From a bacterium (GTDB taxonomy: Bacteria > Armatimonadota > Chthonomonadetes > Chthonomonadales > Chthonomonadaceae): 46,603 bases of DNA. A program made the translations under genes and the position numbers. The notes under the pieces are model-generated. The model was not told where the DNA came from. It saw only the letters and a list, made by a program, of their open reading frames with translations, and did no database searches. Shown here piece by piece: positions 35,511-45,940 of the stretch (positions are counted from its first letter, which is position 1; every line of letters starts with the position of its first letter). The stretch spans positions 1 to 46,603 of the forward strand of contig JAJYCW010000016.1 in assembly GCA_021777995.1 (NCBI GenBank). Reading direction: 5' to 3'.

Positions 35511-36503
35511 TCATTTCTCTGCGGGCATAACTTTCATAAACCAGGCCCTTATCGTAAAGATAATCATTGGATTAAGCACATGGCTGGCATCCACCTGCTC
35601 AACAATAAGGTGGGGGTCGACTCGAGCGGCCGATACGAGTGCCTTGGATGATTCAGGTGGAATAACCTGATCAAACTTCGCAGTTATGATAAACATCGGT
35701 CTAGGGGAGATGAGGCCTACAAAGTGCACCGGATCGGTAATCTCCGTGACGTTGTGAACGATTCGCATTACCTGGGGAGTGACCTTTACGGGCCAGTGTT
35801 CTTCTAAAAACGGGTACTGGGAGATATGTTTTACAACCTGCTCGAGTGCGCCGCCAGGCACGGCCAGACAGAATACCGAAACGCGTTTATCTACGCCGCC
35901 GAAGACAGATCCTAGCATCGCGCCCATCGAAAAGCCAAGGTAGCCCAAGTGCTTCCCGTCAATGTCGTTTCGGCTTTGAAGATAGTCAACCGCACGGCGC
36001 AGATCGACCACTGTTTGTACCCATGCATCGCGTGATGTATAACTGTCGGGCAAGAAAATGTCACCGTTACGATCGGGTAATTTTCGCGCACCACAGTATT
36101 GGGCATCTATTGAGAAAGTGGCATACCCTAACTGAGTAAGTGCAATGCTAGACGTCTTGATATACGACGTATCCTTGCTGCCGCCACTTCCGTGCATAAG
36201 CAGAATGCAAGGATATGGTGCGTGGCCATGAAGGGGAATCGCTAGAATTCCTGTGATGCGTTGGTCGTGAATGCTCGTGTAGGTCACGAGATATCGTCTT
36301 GCGGAAGGTAGGGTGTCTAGAGGTTCAACCTGGGAATTAAGCGGTAGATCGTGATCATAGTGGTACCACTGCCGGCGCATATAAGCCGTAAGTGCGAGGT
36401 GATGCGAGGGTTGCGTTGCCGCCGCACACGAAGGAGTTGCGGTTACCACCGGTGTGATAAGGGTCACGAAGCAGATTGCCAATAAGCGTAGGCCAGATTT
36501 CAA
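35511..36503 (-). CDS. Secreted alpha/beta-hydrolase (acetyl-xylan-esterase or dienelactone-hydrolase type)
   Basis: The 330-residue esterase has a signal peptide (residues 1-28). The fold markers are the oxyanion segment LLMHGSGGSKD (near 103), the nucleophile elbow GFSMGA (S192), the acid D278 (AKFDQVIPPES) and H308 (DASHV). It probably deacylates an extracellular polymer or glycoside; acetyl xylan esterases and YitV-like hydrolases are the closest I can think of. The TTG start has AGGAG 7 nt upstream and overlaps the stop of the PhyH gene (TTGA). The serine hydrolase follows closely. Confidence 0.85.
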   Translation of the reverse strand: MKSGLRLLAICFVTLITPVVTATPSCAAATQPSHHLALTAYMRRQWYHYDHDLPLNSQVEPLDTLPSARRYLVTYTSIHDQRITGILAIPLHGHAPYPCILLMHGSGGSKDTSYIKTSSIALTQLGYATFSIDAQYCGARKLPDRNGDIFLPDSYTSRDAWVQTVVDLRRAVDYLQSRNDIDGKHLGYLGFSMGAMLGSVFGGVDKRVSVFCLAVPGGALEQVVKHISQYPFLEEHWPVKVTPQVMRIVHNVTEITDPVHFVGLISPRPMFIITAKFDQVIPPESSKALVSAARVDPHLIVEQVDASHVLNPMIIFTIRAWFMKVMPAEK

Positions 36504-37399
36504 TTCTTCTCTCCTGCCGCTGCGAGAGTCGCACTTGCTTTACACGTCCGAAGCCAAACGCTGTTAGGCGGGGTAATGTAACCCTTCCAGGCGTAAGGGT
36601 CCGTTCCCGATACAGATACGACGCACCGACTGTCGGCGGATGCCGGAGATTGACCTGGTTCTACAGACCACGGCAGAAGCGAATATGAATTGCAATAGTG
36701 GTTCACTAGCACCCGTCGGTAGATGCTGCTGCGGTTTTTAAGAGAGCGGTGAAGCAGGTAGCCATTGAAAAAGACAACCGACCCGGCCGGAACTTCAACT
36801 GCAACCGCCTGGGAGTCGTCGAACCCGTAGCTCTCCTGAGCGAAGTCGAATTCGTCTTCGTTGTTATGCGCGTGTTGGGGATAGAGGTAGCCTGTTTTGT
36901 GCGAGCCGGGAACTACCCACAAGCAGCCATTCTTCACATTCGCGTCGTCCAGGGCAATCCATGCCCCGGTAAGCGATCGATCCCGCGTAGGTATATAGAT
37001 CTCATCCTGGTGCCATGCCTGTCCCTGGAAATTAGGCGGCTTAACGAACAACATGCTTTGCATGCATTTTACGCTGCCGTCCCAAAAGGGTAGGTGCGCA
37101 CCAACAATCGCTGCTAGCACTGTGCAGATGCCAGGGTGCTGAACATACTTCAACATCACCGGACTTACATAGTGGGGCTGGTGAATGCATAGTATCTCTC
37201 TTAAAACCTGCTCATCCGATTTGCCAGGATCGGCAGGTGTAATTCCCTCGCACGGATATGCACCACGTGCGGTCGCAATTGTGTCCGCCAGCAGTTCCTG
37301 CACCTCTAACGGACTAATGAGGTTTTTACGAACTAAAAAGCCCTGCTCAACAAACGACCGCTGTTCTTCTTTGCTCACAGAAACGTTCTCTGGATCCAC
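36500..37399 (-). CDS. Phytanoyl-CoA dioxygenase (PhyH) family oxygenase, copy 1
   Basis: A 299-residue Fe(II)/2-oxoglutarate oxygenase. The metal triad is H130-x-D132 (AWHQDEIY) and H217 (YLLHRSLKN), with R229 as the likely 2-oxoglutarate anchor. DDANVKNGCLWVVPGSHKTG is a typical PhyH signature. Bacterial members hydroxylate diverse small molecules, natural products or sugars, not only phytanoyl-CoA. GGGAG 7 nt before the GTG supports the start. It opens the four-gene run with the esterase, serine hydrolase and GloVer protein. A TATAAT stands at 37445-37440 without a good -35. Confidence 0.9.
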   Translation of the reverse strand: MDPENVSVSKEEQRSFVEQGFLVRKNLISPLEVQELLADTIATARGAYPCEGITPADPGKSDEQVLREILCIHQPHYVSPVMLKYVQHPGICTVLAAIVGAHLPFWDGSVKCMQSMLFVKPPNFQGQAWHQDEIYIPTRDRSLTGAWIALDDANVKNGCLWVVPGSHKTGYLYPQHAHNNEDEFDFAQESYGFDDSQAVAVEVPAGSVVFFNGYLLHRSLKNRSSIYRRVLVNHYCNSYSLLPWSVEPGQSPASADSRCVVSVSGTDPYAWKGYITPPNSVWLRTCKASATLAAAGEKN

Positions 37400-37919: not shown

Positions 37920-38795
37920 ATGGTTTGGGAGGTCTGTCCCGTGGTAACAATGGCATCCGATTTGCTTGTGTCCGCCGCAAATGAGTTTCAACAACAGGGA
38001 TTTACGGTTGCACGGTCGCTCTTTTCAGGTAGCGAAACCAATGCTCTGCGCGAGCATTTTATGGAGCTACGAAAATCACCCCGTCAAGATGATTATCCGC
38101 CAGTAGATAGTGATAACCCCGATCCTCTGCGCAGATGGCCACGGATGATTCACATGCACCGCTGGGACGAGGTCTCCATGCGGTGGCTCACGGATGCGCG
38201 CCTGAATACCTGGCTAACTGCCATACTTGGTAAGGAGCCATTTGCGGTGCAGACAATGCTCTATTATAAACCCGCCGGCGCTCGTGGGCAGGCGCTTCAC
38301 CAGGACCAGTTCTACCTGAAGGTTCAACCCGGCACTTGTGTTGCCGCGTGGATGGCGCTCGACGACTGTGACGAGGAAAACGGCTGTCTCAACGTCGTAC
38401 CAGGCAGTCATACCTGGCCGGTTTTATGCCCTGTAAAGGCGGACTCGAGCCAGAGCTTCACCGACGTTACCGTGCCGCTAAAGCCTGGTACGCCAGTGGA
38501 GCCCGTTGTGATGCGCGCAGGCGATGTGCTCTTCTTCAATGGCCAGCTAGTCCATGGAAGTTTGCCTAACGTATCAACCGACCGGTTTAGGCGGGCACTT
38601 ATTGGACATTACATTGTAGGCGAGGCTGAAAGCGTTGCCCCCTATTACCATCCTGTGTTGCGCATGGATGGCACGCAGATTTCGTTAGCGGAAAGCGCGG
38701 GTGGCGGCCCGTGCGGCATTTGGGCCGAAGACGACGGTGAACATAGCAAATTTGATCTAAAGGGGCGCCTGGAAGATGGATTCCTACACGAATAA
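37920..38795 (+). CDS. Phytanoyl-CoA dioxygenase (PhyH) family oxygenase, copy 2
   Basis: A 291-residue Fe(II)/2-oxoglutarate oxygenase with H127-x-D129 (ALHQDQFYL), H212 (QLVHGSLPN) and R224 or R225. It shares the family signature ALDDCDEENGCLNVVPGSHTW with copy 1, but overall similarity is low, so the substrates probably differ. The start may be the ATG at 37920 or the one at 37950, which would give MASDLLVSAANEF; neither has a good SD. It faces the ribbon-helix-helix gene and precedes the ligase and radical-SAM genes on the same strand; I infer that it may hydroxylate the same compound they act on. Confidence 0.88.
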   Translation: MVWEVCPVVTMASDLLVSAANEFQQQGFTVARSLFSGSETNALREHFMELRKSPRQDDYPPVDSDNPDPLRRWPRMIHMHRWDEVSMRWLTDARLNTWLTAILGKEPFAVQTMLYYKPAGARGQALHQDQFYLKVQPGTCVAAWMALDDCDEENGCLNVVPGSHTWPVLCPVKADSSQSFTDVTVPLKPGTPVEPVVMRAGDVLFFNGQLVHGSLPNVSTDRFRRALIGHYIVGEAESVAPYYHPVLRMDGTQISLAESAGGGPCGIWAEDDGEHSKFDLKGRLEDGFLHE

Positions 38796-38801
38796 CAGCT
38801 C

Positions 38802-39032
38802 CTATTCCAGTAGATGTTCACAGGTTACGGAAAGCTGCATCTGTTCCTTCTCATAACCAAAATCCTGTGGTTCATCATCAGGTGGTCGAAGGTATCCGTC
38901 ACTGGCAATCATCATGTGAAGACGCTTTCGCATAACGGCAGACATGGTGGTGCCATCCCAATGGGCGCGCCGGCGAAGCCATTCTGCTTCGTCTTCAGTT
39001 AGGTGAACGGTAATGGGCTTGGACCTTTTCAA
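38802..39032 (-). CDS. Ribbon-helix-helix (CopG-like) regulator
   Basis: A 76-residue protein from the TTG at 39032, which has GGAG 6 nt upstream; the frame extends to a GTG at 39095, but that N-terminus looks unlike the family. PITVHLTEDEAEWLRRRAHW followed by TMSAVMRKRLHMMI fits a ribbon-helix-helix DNA-binding domain (a beta strand and two helices). The tail is acidic. Such proteins are often antitoxins or autoregulators; no toxin is adjacent. It is divergent from the ligase/radical-SAM operon and may bind the TCACC/GGTGA repeat between them. The family call is by pattern only. Confidence 0.6.
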   Translation of the reverse strand: MKRSKPITVHLTEDEAEWLRRRAHWDGTTMSAVMRKRLHMMIASDGYLRPPDDEPQDFGYEKEQMQLSVTCEHLLE

Positions 39033-39091
39033 GTAGAACTCCAGTAGGGTATTTGCGGTGACTCTGCTAGTTAGGCTGTTTCGGCAGGAGT

Positions 39092-39106
39092 TCACCGTTT
39101 TGGTGA
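39092..39106. promoter_or_regulatory. Inverted repeat between the RHH gene and the ligase operon
   Basis: TCACC-GTTTT-GGTGA is a perfect inverted repeat 39 bp upstream of the ligase ATG and 60 bp upstream of the RHH start. It overlaps a weak plus-strand -35 (TTGGTG) that is 16 bp from TATTTT. It is a plausible operator for the adjacent regulator. Confidence 0.35.
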
Positions 39107-39145
39107 TAAATTGTTATTGCATATTTTGTGAACGAGGTGTAATGG

Positions 39146-40540
39146 ATGTTACAAGGCATAGACAGACTTGTTGATCTGGTTGGAGTGAGGGAATCTGCAA
39201 GATCAGCAGAGGACCACATTGATATTTCGGCAGCCGTTGCGACCGCGGATATAGCCTCGCTCTCTGCAACCACCGGTCAATGGGCGGCGGTGGGACGTGA
39301 GGGCAACACTGTGCGCCTTGCACGCACCATGGGTATTCCGTTGCGCTACTTTGTAGCAAAAATGTTCCACGGCCCGTTTCTGATTGTCTCGGACAGAATG
39401 GACAGCCTTTACAACTGGTGCGTTGATCACAAGATCGGCTGGCAGTTTGATCCCCTGTATACCCGAATGGTTCCCGCGCACTACCTGCTCGAAATCGATC
39501 AGATTGGATGCCCTGATCCTTCCCCTCGGTATCACCGGTTCTTTAATCCGGCTGTGGCTACCGGGAATGCAGACGTTTCTAGCTGTGGTGAGCAATATGC
39601 ACTGGCTGCCAGCGCTGCGTTACGAAATTGGCTGCTGACGATCCCCCGCGGTGAACAAATCGGGCTCGCATTTTCGGGCGGTGTAGATAGCACCTCTGTT
39701 TGGCTGATGGCACGTAAGGTGCTGGAAGATCTTGGTGGAAACCCGAATGATATCCTCGCCTTCACACTCGACTTAGGAGGGGGAAAGGACGCTGTGCAGG
39801 CTAGGAATGTTGCTGCCCAGCTAAACCTTACAGATCAGCACATTGTGATTGAGGCGGACCCAACGGAGATTGATCTCAAGGAAGCTATCGCTGTAATTGA
39901 GGATTACCACCCGTTAGACGTGCAGTGTGCAGCAAGTGCGTTGTGCCTCCTAAAGCACATCAGAGAATCGTATCCTACCATAAAGTTTCTCCTGGATGGT
40001 GATGGCGGCGATGAAAACTTGAAAGATTACCCGCTAGAGGATTCTGATCTTACGCTCTCTAGCGTACTTAGAAACCCTCTTCTCTACCAGGAGGGATGGG
40101 GAGTGGATGCTATAAAGCACAGTTTGACCTATACAGGAGGATTATCCCGCTCCTATGTGCGAACGGTTGCCCCAGCGGTTCGATATGGGTTTATTGCCTT
40201 TTCCCCCTATGTATCTCGCGAAGCAATTGCAGCGGCCTGTTCCATACCATTTGATGTGCTGCTGAATGGCAGCATTGATCGCCTTTACTCCCTTAAAAAT
40301 GAAATAGTAACTGCTGGGGTACTGGCAGTAACGGGCAAAGAAATGCCTGCGCCGCCTAAGAGGCGGTTTCAAGATGGGATAGGTGGCGACAACTACCGAG
40401 ATTGGCGAGTATCCAAGGCGTGGTGCCGGCAGGTGTTCCTGAAACAGTGGGAGTCTCGCCTAAGTACGGCTTGGGATCCTGCTGCTGAACGGCTCTCGGG
40501 CAATGATCTCTCCGCACCTGTTCCTACTCGAGCAAGTTAA
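39146..40540 (+). CDS. Asparagine-synthase-like ATP-dependent ligase lacking the glutaminase nucleophile
   Basis: The 464-residue protein has an asparagine-synthetase C-terminal domain: PP-loop FSGGVDSTS (177-184), TLDLGGGKD, LLDGDGGDENLKDY (283-296) and PKRRFQDG near 410. It should adenylate a carboxylate and transfer an amine. The N-terminal 165 residues keep the pattern of a class II glutamine amidotransferase (RYFVAKMFHGPFLIVSDR, MVPAHYLLEI), but the essential Cys2 is absent (the protein starts MLQG). It is also shorter than AsnB. So it should use ammonia or another amine, as in lasso cyclases and beta-lactam synthetases. GAGGTG 6 nt before the ATG supports the start. The radical-SAM gene begins two bases after the stop. 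Confidence 0.85.
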   Translation: MLQGIDRLVDLVGVRESARSAEDHIDISAAVATADIASLSATTGQWAAVGREGNTVRLARTMGIPLRYFVAKMFHGPFLIVSDRMDSLYNWCVDHKIGWQFDPLYTRMVPAHYLLEIDQIGCPDPSPRYHRFFNPAVATGNADVSSCGEQYALAASAALRNWLLTIPRGEQIGLAFSGGVDSTSVWLMARKVLEDLGGNPNDILAFTLDLGGGKDAVQARNVAAQLNLTDQHIVIEADPTEIDLKEAIAVIEDYHPLDVQCAASALCLLKHIRESYPTIKFLLDGDGGDENLKDYPLEDSDLTLSSVLRNPLLYQEGWGVDAIKHSLTYTGGLSRSYVRTVAPAVRYGFIAFSPYVSREAIAAACSIPFDVLLNGSIDRLYSLKNEIVTAGVLAVTGKEMPAPPKRRFQDGIGGDNYRDWRVSKAWCRQVFLKQWESRLSTAWDPAAERLSGNDLSAPVPTRAS

Positions 40541-40542
40541 GC

Positions 40543-41502
40543 GTGTGGCAGTATCCAGTAGCTGCATCGCAACAGACAAGATGGATCCGTGAGCTGAGGG
40601 GGCCGCGCAACCCGGTAGACCCTGAAATGGGTTGCGCCGCCCTGCACGAAACAGAGTCGTTAGGCGGTGGCCGCACGGTATCAACCAATGTGCTGTTTCC
40701 GGTTAACAGCGAATGCCCGTTTACCTGCGTAATGTGCGACCTGTGGAAGAACACGCTTCCCACTAAAACACCGGATGGCCTGGTAGTAAGTCAAATTGAC
40801 AAGGCCCTGCAGTCACTACCGCAGGCAGCGTGGATTAAGATCTACAACGCGGGAAGCTTCTTTGATCTCCATGCAATTCCTGCAGCGGATTATAGTGGAA
40901 TTGCTGAATTACTGAAGCCGTATGAACGGGTTATCGTTGAATGTCATCCAGCATTCATTGATGAACGCGTCCTCAAATTTCGCGACCTTCTTGCAGGCCG
41001 TTTGGAAGTTGCCATGGGACTGGAGACTGTCCACGAACCGACACTAAAAATGCTGAACAAACGTTGTAACCTCGGCAAGTTTGAAACAGCAGCGCGGTGG
41101 CTTGTAGACAATAACATTGACCTGCGGACGTTTGTAATCGTGCGACCACCATTTCAGGATGAAGACGAAGCAATTAGATGGGGTCTCAAGAGTCTTGAGT
41201 TTTCTAACGATCTCCATGCGTGCGCAACCACGTTAATACCTGCGCGTCCGGGCAACGGTGCGATGGAACAGCTTCAACAGGTGGGACTATTTACGCCACC
41301 CCACGTTAGAACCGTGGAGTATCTCCTGCAGGCTGGTTTAGAAATGCGAGGCAGCCGCGTCTATGTGGATACCTGGTCTCCCTCGTGGCGGTTGACCTGC
41401 GACTGCGATGGACAGCGGGTAGATCGAATTCTGCAAATGAATTGCAGCCAGTCAGTACCAGAAGCCGTGAGGTGTGCTGCCTGTGGTTCGAATTGGAGCT
41501 GA
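40543..41502 (+). CDS. Radical SAM protein of the TIGR01210/RaSEA-like group with a Cys-rich tail
   Basis: A 319-residue radical-SAM enzyme. The [4Fe-4S] motif is C58-x3-C62-x2-C65 (CPFTCVMC). The following blocks IKIYNAGSFFD, VIVECHPAFI, RLEVAMGLETVHEPTLKML and VIVRPPFQDEDEAI match the layout of TIGR01210-type proteins, a group related to the archaeosine synthase RaSEA and YhcC. The C-terminus has further cysteines (TCDC, MNC, CAAC) that could bind zinc or another cluster. It starts with GTG just after the ligase stop, so the two are cotranslated. The reaction is unknown; I infer that it modifies the same substrate as the ligase. Confidence 0.85.
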   Translation: MWQYPVAASQQTRWIRELRGPRNPVDPEMGCAALHETESLGGGRTVSTNVLFPVNSECPFTCVMCDLWKNTLPTKTPDGLVVSQIDKALQSLPQAAWIKIYNAGSFFDLHAIPAADYSGIAELLKPYERVIVECHPAFIDERVLKFRDLLAGRLEVAMGLETVHEPTLKMLNKRCNLGKFETAARWLVDNNIDLRTFVIVRPPFQDEDEAIRWGLKSLEFSNDLHACATTLIPARPGNGAMEQLQQVGLFTPPHVRTVEYLLQAGLEMRGSRVYVDTWSPSWRLTCDCDGQRVDRILQMNCSQSVPEAVRCAACGSNWS

Positions 41503-43543: not shown

Positions 43544-44650
43544 CTAAGCCGTTGATGCGGAGTAATCTCGACGCCTGCGTATTCCCCGCTGCGCACGCTC
43601 CATGTTGATTTTGTAGACGAATGCCAACACTTCTGCAACTGCCGCATATAGATCCGGGGGAATTTCGCCATCTACCGGGGTCTGTTTGTAGATTGCTCGG
43701 GCAAGTGGCGGATTCTCCACGATGGGGATGTCGTTCTCCTGTGCTAGTTCGCGAATCTTAAGTGCAATCAGGTCCTGACCTTTGGCCACCACCCTGGGAG
43801 CCCGCATCTGCCCGGCTTCGTACTTTAGCGCTACTGCAAAGTGAGTTGGGTTAGTGACTACGACATCTGCCGACGGTACGTTTGCCATCATTCGCTTGCG
43901 CGCCATCTGACGCATTTTCGCGCGCATCCGGCTTTTTAGCAGCGGGCTGCCCTCTGTCTGCTTAAACTCCTGGCGAACTTCCTCTTTGGTCATGCGCAAC
44001 TGTTTCTCTGTATTGTAACGCTGGTACGCATAATCAAGGGCCGCCAGTATGAACATTGCTCCAACTATTCGCAGTATGAGGGTGTGCACTACGGCAAGCA
44101 CTCCGGAGACGCCGGTTCCAATATCGGTGCGGCTGAGGAGCAGCATATGTGGATAGGCAGCACGCACTGTAGTGTAGCAAAGGTAACCGATGAGCCCTAC
44201 TTTCCAGATGGATTTTGCAAGCTCGACGAAGCCGGTTGCGCTCACGAAGCGCTGAATTCCTTGAAGAGGGTTGAGCCGGGAGAAGTTCGGTTGAAGTCGT
44301 TCTAGCGCGAGCATCGGTCCAGTCTGGGCGATGTTCGAAACGACACCGCAAACCATGGCTAACGCAACAAGGGGTCCAATTGCACGCACTACGGTAAAGC
44401 ATATCATGGCGCCAATGTTCATTACATGGGATACGGACATCTGGGTGTTTTGCAGGCCGCCAAATGTGCGGATGAACATGTTTTGAATAACGTGCGCTGC
44501 GTTTGCCCCAATAGACGGCAGTTCCATAGTAATCGCAAGCATTACAACCAGCGATGAAAGCTCACTACTCTTCGCTACCTGTCCCTTTTTTCTAGCATCA
44601 CGCCGTCGTTTTGGCGTCGCTGCCTCTGTTTTGTCGTCACCTGCCGCCAT
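43544..44650 (-). CDS. flhB: Flagellar type III export protein FlhB
   Basis: The 368-residue export-gate protein opens with the standard DDKTEAATPKRRRDARKKGQVAKSSE, followed by four TM helices. The C-terminal domain carries the autocleavage site N267-P268-T269-H270 (VVVTNPTH) and then AVALKYE. FlhB switches export from rod/hook to filament substrates after cleavage between N and P. It is the last of fliQ-fliR-flhB. The usual next gene, flhA, is missing: a plus-strand acetyltransferase gene is convergent here. The start is an ATG 6 bp after the fliR stop. Confidence 0.95.
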   Translation of the reverse strand: MAAGDDKTEAATPKRRRDARKKGQVAKSSELSSLVVMLAITMELPSIGANAAHVIQNMFIRTFGGLQNTQMSVSHVMNIGAMICFTVVRAIGPLVALAMVCGVVSNIAQTGPMLALERLQPNFSRLNPLQGIQRFVSATGFVELAKSIWKVGLIGYLCYTTVRAAYPHMLLLSRTDIGTGVSGVLAVVHTLILRIVGAMFILAALDYAYQRYNTEKQLRMTKEEVRQEFKQTEGSPLLKSRMRAKMRQMARKRMMANVPSADVVVTNPTHFAVALKYEAGQMRAPRVVAKGQDLIALKIRELAQENDIPIVENPPLARAIYKQTPVDGEIPPDLYAAVAEVLAFVYKINMERAQRGIRRRRDYSASTA

Positions 44651-44656
44651 GGTGTG

Positions 44657-45442
44657 TTACCTCAAACTCGCGAGCAGTGCTGTGAACCCTGAACTTGTGC
44701 CTACGAGGATGCGCCCCACTACAATGCCCAAGATGGGCATTAGAAACGCTACTGTGGCAAGCCCCATAATAATCTTTGCGGGCATACCTACGATAAATAC
44801 GTTGATCTGTGGGGCAGCCCGTGCAATGAGACCAAGCCCTACGTCGGTTAGAAACAGGACGCCAATAGCCGGCAGTGCAAGTTGAAAGCTTAACTCCATC
44901 ATGGTGGAGAGGAGCGGGATCATGTTGTCTACGTGCGCAATTCCGCCAACCACTGCATCTGGAGGCACCACGTAAAAACTGCGCGTAAGTGCACCTAGTA
45001 ACAACAGTGGTCCATTCAGTATGAAATAGAGCGTGATGGCCGTTTGGTACTGAAATGCCGCCATAATAGAGCTTTGCTGCTGCGAGAATGGATCAAGCAG
45101 GTTAACGATACCAAATCCCATTTGGGTATCGATAAAAAAGCCTGCAATCTTCACTGCAGCGAAGAGCAGCATCGTGAAATACCCTATGGCCAGTCCAATA
45201 ATTCCGTTTTGTAAAATGAGGAGCGCCAAGGCAATGAGGTTGGTAGGTATCGGGCCGGTATGGACGCTTAATACGGGAGTTACCGCCATTGCAAAAACGA
45301 TGGTAAGACCTGCTAGCGCCTGCCGGGGCACAGAATGATTTCCTAAGATCGGCGTGCCAGTCAACAGGCCGCCGGTTCTCGCTCCTATGAGCAGAAATGC
45401 GTAGAATTCATGTTCTGGAACGGGGAAGGCTGCCATCGACAT
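44657..45442 (-). CDS. fliR: Flagellar type III export protein FliR
   Basis: A 261-residue polytopic component of the FliP5-Q4-R1 export gate. It has the FliR layout of about six TM helices, with LIGARTGGLLTGTPILG in the first, ILQNGIIGLAIGYFTMLLFAA and AGFFIDTQMGFGIVNLLDPF in the middle, and SFQLALPAIGVLFLTDVGLGLIARAAPQINVFIVG near the end, all family marks. The ATG is directly after the fliQ stop with no gap. FlhB follows after 6 bp. Confidence 0.95.
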   Translation of the reverse strand: MSMAAFPVPEHEFYAFLLIGARTGGLLTGTPILGNHSVPRQALAGLTIVFAMAVTPVLSVHTGPIPTNLIALALLILQNGIIGLAIGYFTMLLFAAVKIAGFFIDTQMGFGIVNLLDPFSQQQSSIMAAFQYQTAITLYFILNGPLLLLGALTRSFYVVPPDAVVGGIAHVDNMIPLLSTMMELSFQLALPAIGVLFLTDVGLGLIARAAPQINVFIVGMPAKIIMGLATVAFLMPILGIVVGRILVGTSSGFTALLASLR

Positions 45443-45712
45443 TTAGTTGGTGACCGGCGGCATATGAGTAAAAGTCATTTTGAAGAATCCCACTAACGAG
45501 TTGAGCATCCATGGGCCAAAAATGGCAAGTGCCAGAATAACGGCCAACAGTTTTGGCACAAATGTTAGGGTAAATTCCTGAATTTGAGTCACCGCCTGGA
45601 ACAGTGATACCAATACCCCAGCGACGAGGCCAAACATAAGAACAGGCAGTGAAAGCTTCAATGCAATGATCAACATTTCGCGGCCTGCGTCTAAAACGGC
45701 TCGATCGGTCAA
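45443..45712 (-). CDS. fliQ: Flagellar type III export protein FliQ
   Basis: Exactly the standard 89 residues from the TTG at 45712, which has GGAGGTG 6 nt upstream. The reading frame stays open for 71 further codons across tRNA-Phe, but that part is not protein-like. Two TM helices contain LIIALKLSLPVLMFGLVAGV and TFVPKLLAVILALAIFG, joined by FQAVTQIQEFTLTF, the FliQ hairpin. It forms the export gate with FliP and FliR. It is the first gene of the run; a sigma-28-like promoter sits upstream, and fliP is not in the window. Confidence 0.95.
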   Translation of the reverse strand: MTDRAVLDAGREMLIIALKLSLPVLMFGLVAGVLVSLFQAVTQIQEFTLTFVPKLLAVILALAIFGPWMLNSLVGFFKMTFTHMPPVTN

Positions 45713-45764
45713 AAAAGCACCTCCGAAATCCCATTGAGGCGGCCCAGTGCGGGCTTCATTAGGA

Positions 45765-45792
45765 TTATCGGCAGGTAACACTCGCAAAATTA
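45765..45792 (-). promoter_or_regulatory. Sigma-28 (FliA)-like promoter of fliQRflhB
   Basis: On the minus strand the exact FliA -10 GCCGATAA (45772-45765) follows TAAT (45792-45789) by 16 bp, against the ideal TAAA and 15 bp. Initiation would be near 45757, 45 bp before the fliQ start. It lies between tRNA-Phe and fliQ. Export-apparatus genes are usually under earlier flagellar classes, so this is suggestive only. Confidence 0.4.
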
Positions 45793-45867
45793 CGGTGAAT
45801 TGGTATACAGAACGGTGAAGTGAACAAGTGATTCGACCGAAGAGATTAAACTGAAGAGGAAGGGAAA

Positions 45868-45940
<73 letters not shown>

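What the first reader, a model, noticed from the sequence alone, without database searches (positions are those of the whole stretch)
37920..41502. Amine-ligase plus radical-SAM pair with a PhyH oxygenase and an RHH regulator: a possible undescribed pathway
Seen: the asparagine-synthase-like gene (Cys2 absent, PP-loop and GDGGDE intact) is followed after two bases by a radical-SAM gene. An RHH gene is divergent, and a PhyH oxygenase lies just upstream. Family knowledge: AsnB-like ligases without a working glutaminase include lasso cyclase and beta-lactam synthetase, and TIGR01210-like radical-SAM proteins are related to RaSEA, which acts on archaeosine in tRNA. Inference: the four genes may adenylate, aminate or cyclise, then radically rearrange, and hydroxylate one substrate, perhaps a small metabolite, a peptide or a tRNA base. 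I found no precursor peptide gene or NRPS/PKS.
Basis: partly seen in the sequence, partly recalled or inferred. Interest (0 to 1): 0.75.

Follow-up and report, generated by a model that had tools for sequence, protein, structure and literature searches.

The report
Conserved ligase, radical enzyme, halogenase trio
Two neighbouring bacterial genes, a ligase and a radical-chemistry enzyme, are kept together across several phyla and mostly come with a predicted halogenase, so the three likely make one unknown small molecule together; the other two genes in the finding are probably bystanders.

Summary
The asparagine-synthetase-like ligase (39146-40540) and the radical-SAM gene (40543-41502) lie two bases apart. 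The ligase lacks the glutaminase cysteine: its model aligns only from about AsnB residue 41. The pair is conserved. Among 61 Armatimonadota genomes, 21 have both genes, 1 the ligase only and none the radical SAM only; among 148 Planctomycetota, 10 have both and none has one alone. It lies within 300 bp downstream in 32 of 48 loci. In the window's own genome it is unlinked (G000:C166:34619-36061). It was found in 20 of the 22 Armatimonadota genomes with the ligase and in none of the other 39. The PhyH and RHH neighbours are kept only among close relatives, and the genome has 20 PhyH genes, so they are probably not core. Best reading: an undescribed three-enzyme pathway in which the ligase joins an amine to a carboxylate, the radical-SAM enzyme cleaves or rearranges the adduct (as RaSEA does after ArcS), and the flavoenzyme modifies an aromatic part. 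The product is unknown; in some lineages the genes adjoin UnbV/UnbU-type proteins.

The parts
39146..40540 (+). Asparagine-synthetase-like ligase, 464 aa, N-terminal domain shortened, glutaminase cysteine absent; core
   Evidence: model aligns from AsnB residue 41 and beta-lactam synthetase residue 44
39674..39691 (+). PP-loop SGGVDS of the ligase (residues 177-182)
   Evidence: Alignment A3
39995..40015 (+). DGDGGDE motif of the ligase (residues 284-290)
   Evidence: Alignments A3 and A6
40543..41502 (+). Radical-SAM enzyme, 319 aa, RaSEA/Elp3-like; core partner, 2 bases after the ligase stop
   Evidence: TIGR01210 1.9e-24 but 86.4 bits against a cut-off of 212.15; co-occurrence; model
40714..40737 (+). 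CxxxCxxC motif (Cys58, Cys62, Cys65) of the radical-SAM enzyme
   Evidence: Invariant in A2 (29 rows) and A7 (36 rows)
37920..38795 (+). PhyH-family oxygenase; neighbour among close relatives only, probably not core
   Evidence: Pfam PhyH 4.2e-37; 20 PhyH matches in the genome; this neighbour conserved only in L001, L002 and the window
38802..39095 (-). RHH-like small protein; neighbour among close relatives only, probably not core
   Evidence: Weak NikA-like and RelB-like hits below cut-offs; conserved only in L001, L002 and the window

Best explanation
The ligase and radical-SAM genes are a two-gene unit that is conserved across several bacterial phyla and co-occurs with an unlinked flavin-halogenase homolog in this genome, and the three enzymes would likely act one after another on one small molecule. 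Proposed mechanism (inferred): the ligase adenylates a carboxylate with ATP at its PP-loop. Because it has no glutaminase to release ammonia, it joins that carboxylate to an amine, probably an amino acid. The radical-SAM enzyme then cleaves or rearranges the adduct, as RaSEA converts the lysine adduct made by ArcS. The PltM-like flavoenzyme halogenates (or, if its altered motif matters, hydroxylates) an aromatic ring of the substrate. The product is a small metabolite or cofactor rather than a polyketide or non-ribosomal peptide. In some lineages the genes stand in one run with FG-GAP/UnbV and UnbU-like proteins, which may use or process the product. Shown here: conservation, co-occurrence, gene order, motifs, predicted folds. 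Inferred: substrate, order of steps, product, halogenation.
Confidence: 0.45

Rival explanations
1. The trio is a maturation system for exported FG-GAP/UnbV proteins: it would install a modified residue or a small prosthetic group in them before Tat export, as flavoprotein plus radical-SAM maturases do for quinohemoprotein amine dehydrogenase (recalled).
For: In 61 Armatimonadota genomes the 22 with the ligase have 4-22 UnbV (PF07593) copies; the 39 without have 0-2, except G008 with 5. The 46 genomes behind loci L003-L048 all have UnbV, 3-24 copies, and the 10 Planctomycetota with the pair have 4-10. In L016 the trio is followed by a TPR/FG-GAP gene, a UnbV gene and a UnbU-like gene; L019 has the FG-GAP/UnbV-type and UnbU-like genes after its trio. 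Four of five UnbV proteins viewed in the own genome begin with a twin-arginine and lipobox-like stretch. The halogenase homolog hits the QhpG, GoxB and LodB maturase models below their cut-offs.
Against: 99 of 138 Planctomycetota without the radical SAM also have UnbV, at least 37 copies in two of them. The UnbU-like gene is in 11 of 148, only one of them (G074) a genome with the pair. Invariant residues of 16 UnbV sequences are mostly Gly and Asp of the repeats, with two Trp, one Phe, one Asn and two Pro; no site is singled out.
Confidence: 0.2
2. The pair modifies a tRNA base, like ArcS/RaSEA: the ligase or a partner adds an amine and the radical-SAM enzyme makes the final base.
For: TIGR01210 (RaSEA) and TIGR01212 (MnmL) are the only NCBIfam hits of the radical-SAM protein; Elp3 and queuine lyase are among the best folds.
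Against: Below the RaSEA cut-off. Patchy distribution (22 of 61, 10 of 148) and a frequent PltM-like partner do not suit a tRNA base. ArcS and TGT were not searched for.
Confidence: 0.12
3. A RiPP pathway: the ligase cyclises or amidates a small precursor peptide, and the radical-SAM and flavin enzymes add further changes.
For: AsnB-like enzymes make lasso peptides and amidate or nitrilate RiPPs (passages of PMC13060819); the albusnodin/ikarugamycin cyclase model hits weakly.
Against: In up to 700 bp upstream of the ligase (32 loci and the window) and downstream of the halogenase homolog or, in the window, of the radical SAM (25 loci and the window), the 15 largest groups of similar small ORFs are from close relatives or lie on the opposite strand beside a conserved neighbour gene. 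Precursor genes elsewhere were not excluded.
Confidence: 0.1
4. The four genes 37920-41502 are one pathway with PhyH as hydroxylase and RHH as regulator, as first proposed.
For: Kept in the same order in the window, L001 and L002; another PhyH follows the pair in L003.
Against: 20 PhyH genes in the genome; neither PhyH2 nor RHH is next to the pair in the other 46 loci.
Confidence: 0.08

Closest known systems
Asparagine synthetase B (AsnB)
   Same: PP-loop ATP-binding fold, SGGxDS and GDGGDE-like motifs, shared C-terminal domain
   Different: About 40 N-terminal residues with the glutaminase cysteine are missing; 54.5 bits against a TIGR01536 cut-off of 267.1; shares the genome with the radical-SAM gene in 21 of 22 and 10 of 10 cases
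Beta-lactam synthetase and carbapenam synthetase
   Different: 18-20% and 12% identity in the structural alignments; cyclisation of one substrate not shown here; their pathway partners were not searched for
RaSEA with ArcS (archaeosine synthase)
   Same: Radical-SAM member nearest TIGR01210; analogy of adding an amine first and converting by a radical second (passages of PMC11298593)
   Different: Far below the family cut-off; partner here is an AsnB-like ligase plus a halogenase homolog; no archaeosine route tested
PltM, tetracycline 7-halogenase and other flavin-dependent halogenases
   Same: PltM 3.1e-80 with the family profile; lysine aligned with that of PltM invariant in 23 rows
   Different: WxWxLR-like instead of WxWxIP in most rows; partnership with the ligase and radical-SAM genes
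Enediyne cassette proteins UnbV and UnbU (recalled)
   Same: UnbV_ASPIC proteins and a NQR2/RnfD-family membrane protein stand beside the trio in some lineages
   Different: No PKS family among the 25 of 55 families shown for 35 large ORFs; UnbV is common without the pair in Planctomycetota

Membership tests
Asparagine synthetase (glutamine-hydrolysing) | N-terminal catalytic cysteine and complete glutaminase domain | tested here: not met
   Protein starts MLQGID; in-frame TAA is the second codon upstream; model aligns from AsnB residue 41; no glutaminase Pfam hit
Asparagine synthetase (glutamine-hydrolysing) | Score above the TIGR01536 cut-off | tested here: not met
   54.5 bits, cut-off 267.1
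AsnB-like PP-loop ligases (superfamily) | PP-loop SGGxDS and synthetase fold | tested here: met
Lasso or albusnodin-type cyclase | Score above the family cut-off (NF033561) | tested here: not met
   18.3 bits, cut-off 300
Lasso or albusnodin-type cyclase | Precursor peptide gene beside the ligase | tested here: inconclusive
   No small ORF group conserved beyond close relatives or antisense stretches among the 15 largest groups in the flanks examined; one BLAST-based test on 700 bp flanks
Beta-lactam synthetase | Substrate cyclisation to a beta-lactam | not testable with these tools
   Fold match only
RaSEA (TIGR01210) | Score above the equivalog cut-off | tested here: not met
   86.4 bits, cut-off 212.15; 86.3 bits in the genome search
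RaSEA (TIGR01210) | Partner ArcS and preQ0 in tRNA | not tested
   ArcS and TGT were not searched for
Radical SAM superfamily | CxxxCxxC cluster motif and partial TIM-barrel fold | tested here: met
   Cys58, Cys62, Cys65 invariant; fold
Flavin-dependent halogenase (third gene, outside the window) | Conserved active-site lysine | tested here: met
   Invariant in 23 rows and aligned with the PltM lysine
Flavin-dependent halogenase (third gene, outside the window) | WxWxIP motif | tested here: not met
   Found in 1 of 23 rows, L028; WIWSLR in the own genome's copy
Flavin-dependent halogenase (third gene, outside the window) | Halogenation of a substrate | not testable with these tools
   Needs an assay

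The most novel reading that the evidence does not exclude
The trio makes a previously unknown halogenated cofactor or prosthetic group, built by borrowing nitrogen from an amino acid (ligate, then cut by a radical) and shared across at least five phyla, which a subset of exported FG-GAP/UnbV proteins and their UnbU-like membrane partner use for redox or halogen chemistry at the cell surface.
Probability: 0.12. Interest if true: 0.9.

Novelty: new variant of a known kind. Interest (0 to 1): 0.62.

Why it matters
A pair that nearly always co-occurs, usually with the same third enzyme, in Armatimonadota, Acidobacteriota, Planctomycetota, Verrucomicrobiota and Bacteroidota (by record titles), and to which none of the papers I could search assigns a product, points to a missing piece of metabolism rather than a local oddity. 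Named strains carry all three genes in one run (Limnoglobus roseus L019, Fodinibius roseus L006, Fodinibius sediminis L021), so the product can be sought directly, for example by its halogen isotope pattern. It may also give a handle on why FG-GAP/UnbV proteins are so numerous in these phyla.

Tried and rejected
PhyH as part of the pathway: rejected as core because the genome has 20 copies and the neighbourhood is kept only among close relatives. RHH: below the family cut-offs and seen only in the same three genomes. Ordinary asparagine synthesis: rejected. RiPP precursor: none seen in the flanks, not excluded elsewhere. PKS or NRPS: 35 proteins scanned (29 of the 32 neighbour ORFs of 700 aa or more in L001-L048, the three window ORFs of 600 aa or more, three UnbV-type proteins); none of the 25 families shown of 55 is a PKS or NRPS domain, nor is any hit of the 18 proteins scanned singly (some of these are among the 35). 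Smaller neighbours were mostly not annotated. UnbV as obligatory partner: proposed after the Armatimonadota result, weakened by Planctomycetota, kept only as a rival. UnbU-like gene as obligatory partner: 13 of 22 ligase genomes and 0 of 39 others in Armatimonadota, but only 1 of the 10 pair genomes in Planctomycetota, and that one (G074) is the genome of L016, which is in the search profile. Rows dropped before counts: three ligase hits near 1e-3 in G023, G049 and G058, taken as ordinary AsnB-type matches; one weak second halogenase hit in G027. Overlaps: L001 and L002 appear to be G001 and G002; L003, G010 and G061 are one genome; L016 is G074. Literature: nine searches answered; no listed title or abstract describes this trio, but the library lacks most subscription journals. 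Albofungin papers contain both search words, halogenase and asparagine synth (listing only); not read further.
Full report
Observation. A second PhyH (36500-37399, -) lies outside the given range. The ligase hits Pfam Asn_synthase (1.3e-16) but reaches only 54.5 of the 267.1 bits that TIGR01536 needs. The radical-SAM protein hits TIGR01210, RaSEA, at 1.9e-24 but with 86.4 of 212.15 bits.

Host. The nearest named hits come from Armatimonadota (Capsulimonas corticalis and Chthonomonadaceae records).

Is the radical-SAM gene the conserved neighbour? In 48 loci found with the radical-SAM protein in species genomes, the ligase is directly upstream on the same strand in 34, 4-5 kb upstream in 2 and not seen in 12, of which 3 hold under 1 kb upstream. 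By record titles these loci span Armatimonadota, Acidobacteriota, Planctomycetota, Verrucomicrobiota and Bacteroidota, with one Nevskia record. Because those loci were picked by the radical SAM, I also searched whole genomes. In 61 Armatimonadota genomes the ligase is in 22 (three hits near 1e-3 set aside), the radical SAM in 21 of these and in none of the other 39; 18 of the 21 are adjacent, 3 are on different contigs. In 148 Planctomycetota genomes the ligase is in 10 and the radical SAM in the same 10, 8 adjacent. Fisher tests give about 1e-15 in each sample, without correction for relatedness. In many genomes only a capped number of first-look candidates was scored (15, 11, 25).

The missing partner. 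Clustering of the neighbours showed a third gene directly downstream of the radical SAM. It is within 300 bp downstream in 32 of 48 loci and elsewhere in the locus in 2. Its profile matches flavin-dependent halogenases: PltM at 3.1e-80 and tetracycline 7-halogenase at 6.7e-77. The PltM lysine (catalytic by recall) aligns with an invariant lysine, but the WxWxIP motif (recalled) is kept in only 1 of 23 rows, so hydroxylation cannot be excluded. In the Armatimonadota sample a profile with no row from a record titled Armatimonadota finds it in 20 of the 22 ligase genomes and none of the 39 others. In 11 of the 20 it is beside the radical SAM; in 9, the window's genome among them (G000:C166:34619-36061, read in L079), it is elsewhere. 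Co-occurrence without linkage is the strongest sign of a shared function. It was not counted in Planctomycetota.

What is not part of it. PhyH2 and RHH stand beside the pair only in the window, L001 and L002. The genome has 20 PhyH matches. In L003 another PhyH follows the pair, at 24-29% identity.

Wider neighbourhood. In 12 of 69 loci lie FG-GAP-type genes of one cluster whose scanned members mostly carry the UnbV_ASPIC domain, and in 5 a gene of a NQR2/RnfD-family cluster. In L016 the run is ligase, radical SAM, halogenase homolog, TPR/FG-GAP gene, UnbV gene and UnbU-like gene; the search of its genome G074 puts UnbV between radical SAM and UnbU too. L019 has the trio, an FG-GAP/UnbV-type gene and the UnbU-like gene. 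UnbV copy number follows the ligase in Armatimonadota: 4-22 copies in the 22 genomes with it; 0-2 in 38 of 39 without it, and 5 in G008. All 46 genomes behind loci L003-L048 have 3-24 copies (G061 among them is the same genome as G010). In Planctomycetota the 10 genomes with the pair have 4-10 copies, but 99 of the 138 others also have UnbV, at least 37 copies in two (at least 4 copies in 10 of 10 against 62 of 138, p 5e-4, uncorrected). So genomes with the pair have UnbV, while UnbV does not need the pair. The UnbU-like gene is in 13 of 61 Armatimonadota, all with the ligase, but in 11 of 148 Planctomycetota with only one pair genome. I therefore treat the UnbV link as lineage-specific.

Feature of the window's relatives. 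The radical SAM of the window, L001 and L002 has diverged: 45% mean identity to other Armatimonadota, against 56% among those, while the ligase has 65% and 69%. Distances of the two proteins correlate across 20 genomes (Mantel r 0.61, 0 of 2000 permutations as high), which shared ancestry alone could also give.

Literature. Nine answered searches listed no title or abstract describing the trio; passages were read in PMC12758564, PMC3174227, PMC3909097, PMC13060819 and PMC11298593. The enediyne roles of UnbV/UnbU, the halogenase motifs and the amine-dehydrogenase maturases are recalled.

Verdict. The pair is real and conserved, its partner set was misjudged, and the likely set is ligase, radical SAM and flavin-halogenase homolog. 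Product unknown.

Noticed in passing
L074 5707-7551 (-), L075 6096-7787 (-), L076 4070-5803 (+), L077 4381-6186 (+): Four of five UnbV/FG-GAP proteins viewed in the own genome start with a twin-arginine stretch followed by a lipobox-like cysteine, which suggests Tat export as lipoproteins; the fifth (L078 4622-6538) lacks it.
   Followed up: partly
L078 1006-7430: A 1210-aa gene, a UnbV gene and a UnbU-like membrane gene form one run in the window's own genome, apart from the pair; the first looks by eye like the TPR/FG-GAP genes of other loci.
   Followed up: partly
window 40543-41502: The radical-SAM protein of the window and its two close relatives has diverged much more than the ligase (45% against 56% mean identity), perhaps linked to the halogenase homolog being unlinked there.
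   Followed up: partly
L033 6464-8885, L039 5727-8171: In two Planctomycetota loci the radical-SAM gene, without ligase or halogenase beside it, follows a NuoN-type gene (L033 scanned) and two further genes of the same cluster.
   Followed up: no
L081 1020-2619: ABC transporter permease and ATPase genes lie directly before the ligase in this Armatimonadota locus; not seen as a shared feature.
   Followed up: partly
L084-L088: In Bacteroidota loci, UnbV-type proteins of about 1120 aa sit beside what look by eye like SusC/SusD pairs.
   Followed up: no
window 43544-45925 (-): By eye, flagellar export genes resembling flhB, fliR and fliQ lie downstream; not searched.
   Followed up: no
L020, L030, L031, L034, L048: In several Verrucomicrobiota the radical-SAM and halogenase-homolog genes are adjacent without the ligase in the held DNA; whether the ligase is elsewhere in those genomes was not tested.
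   Followed up: no
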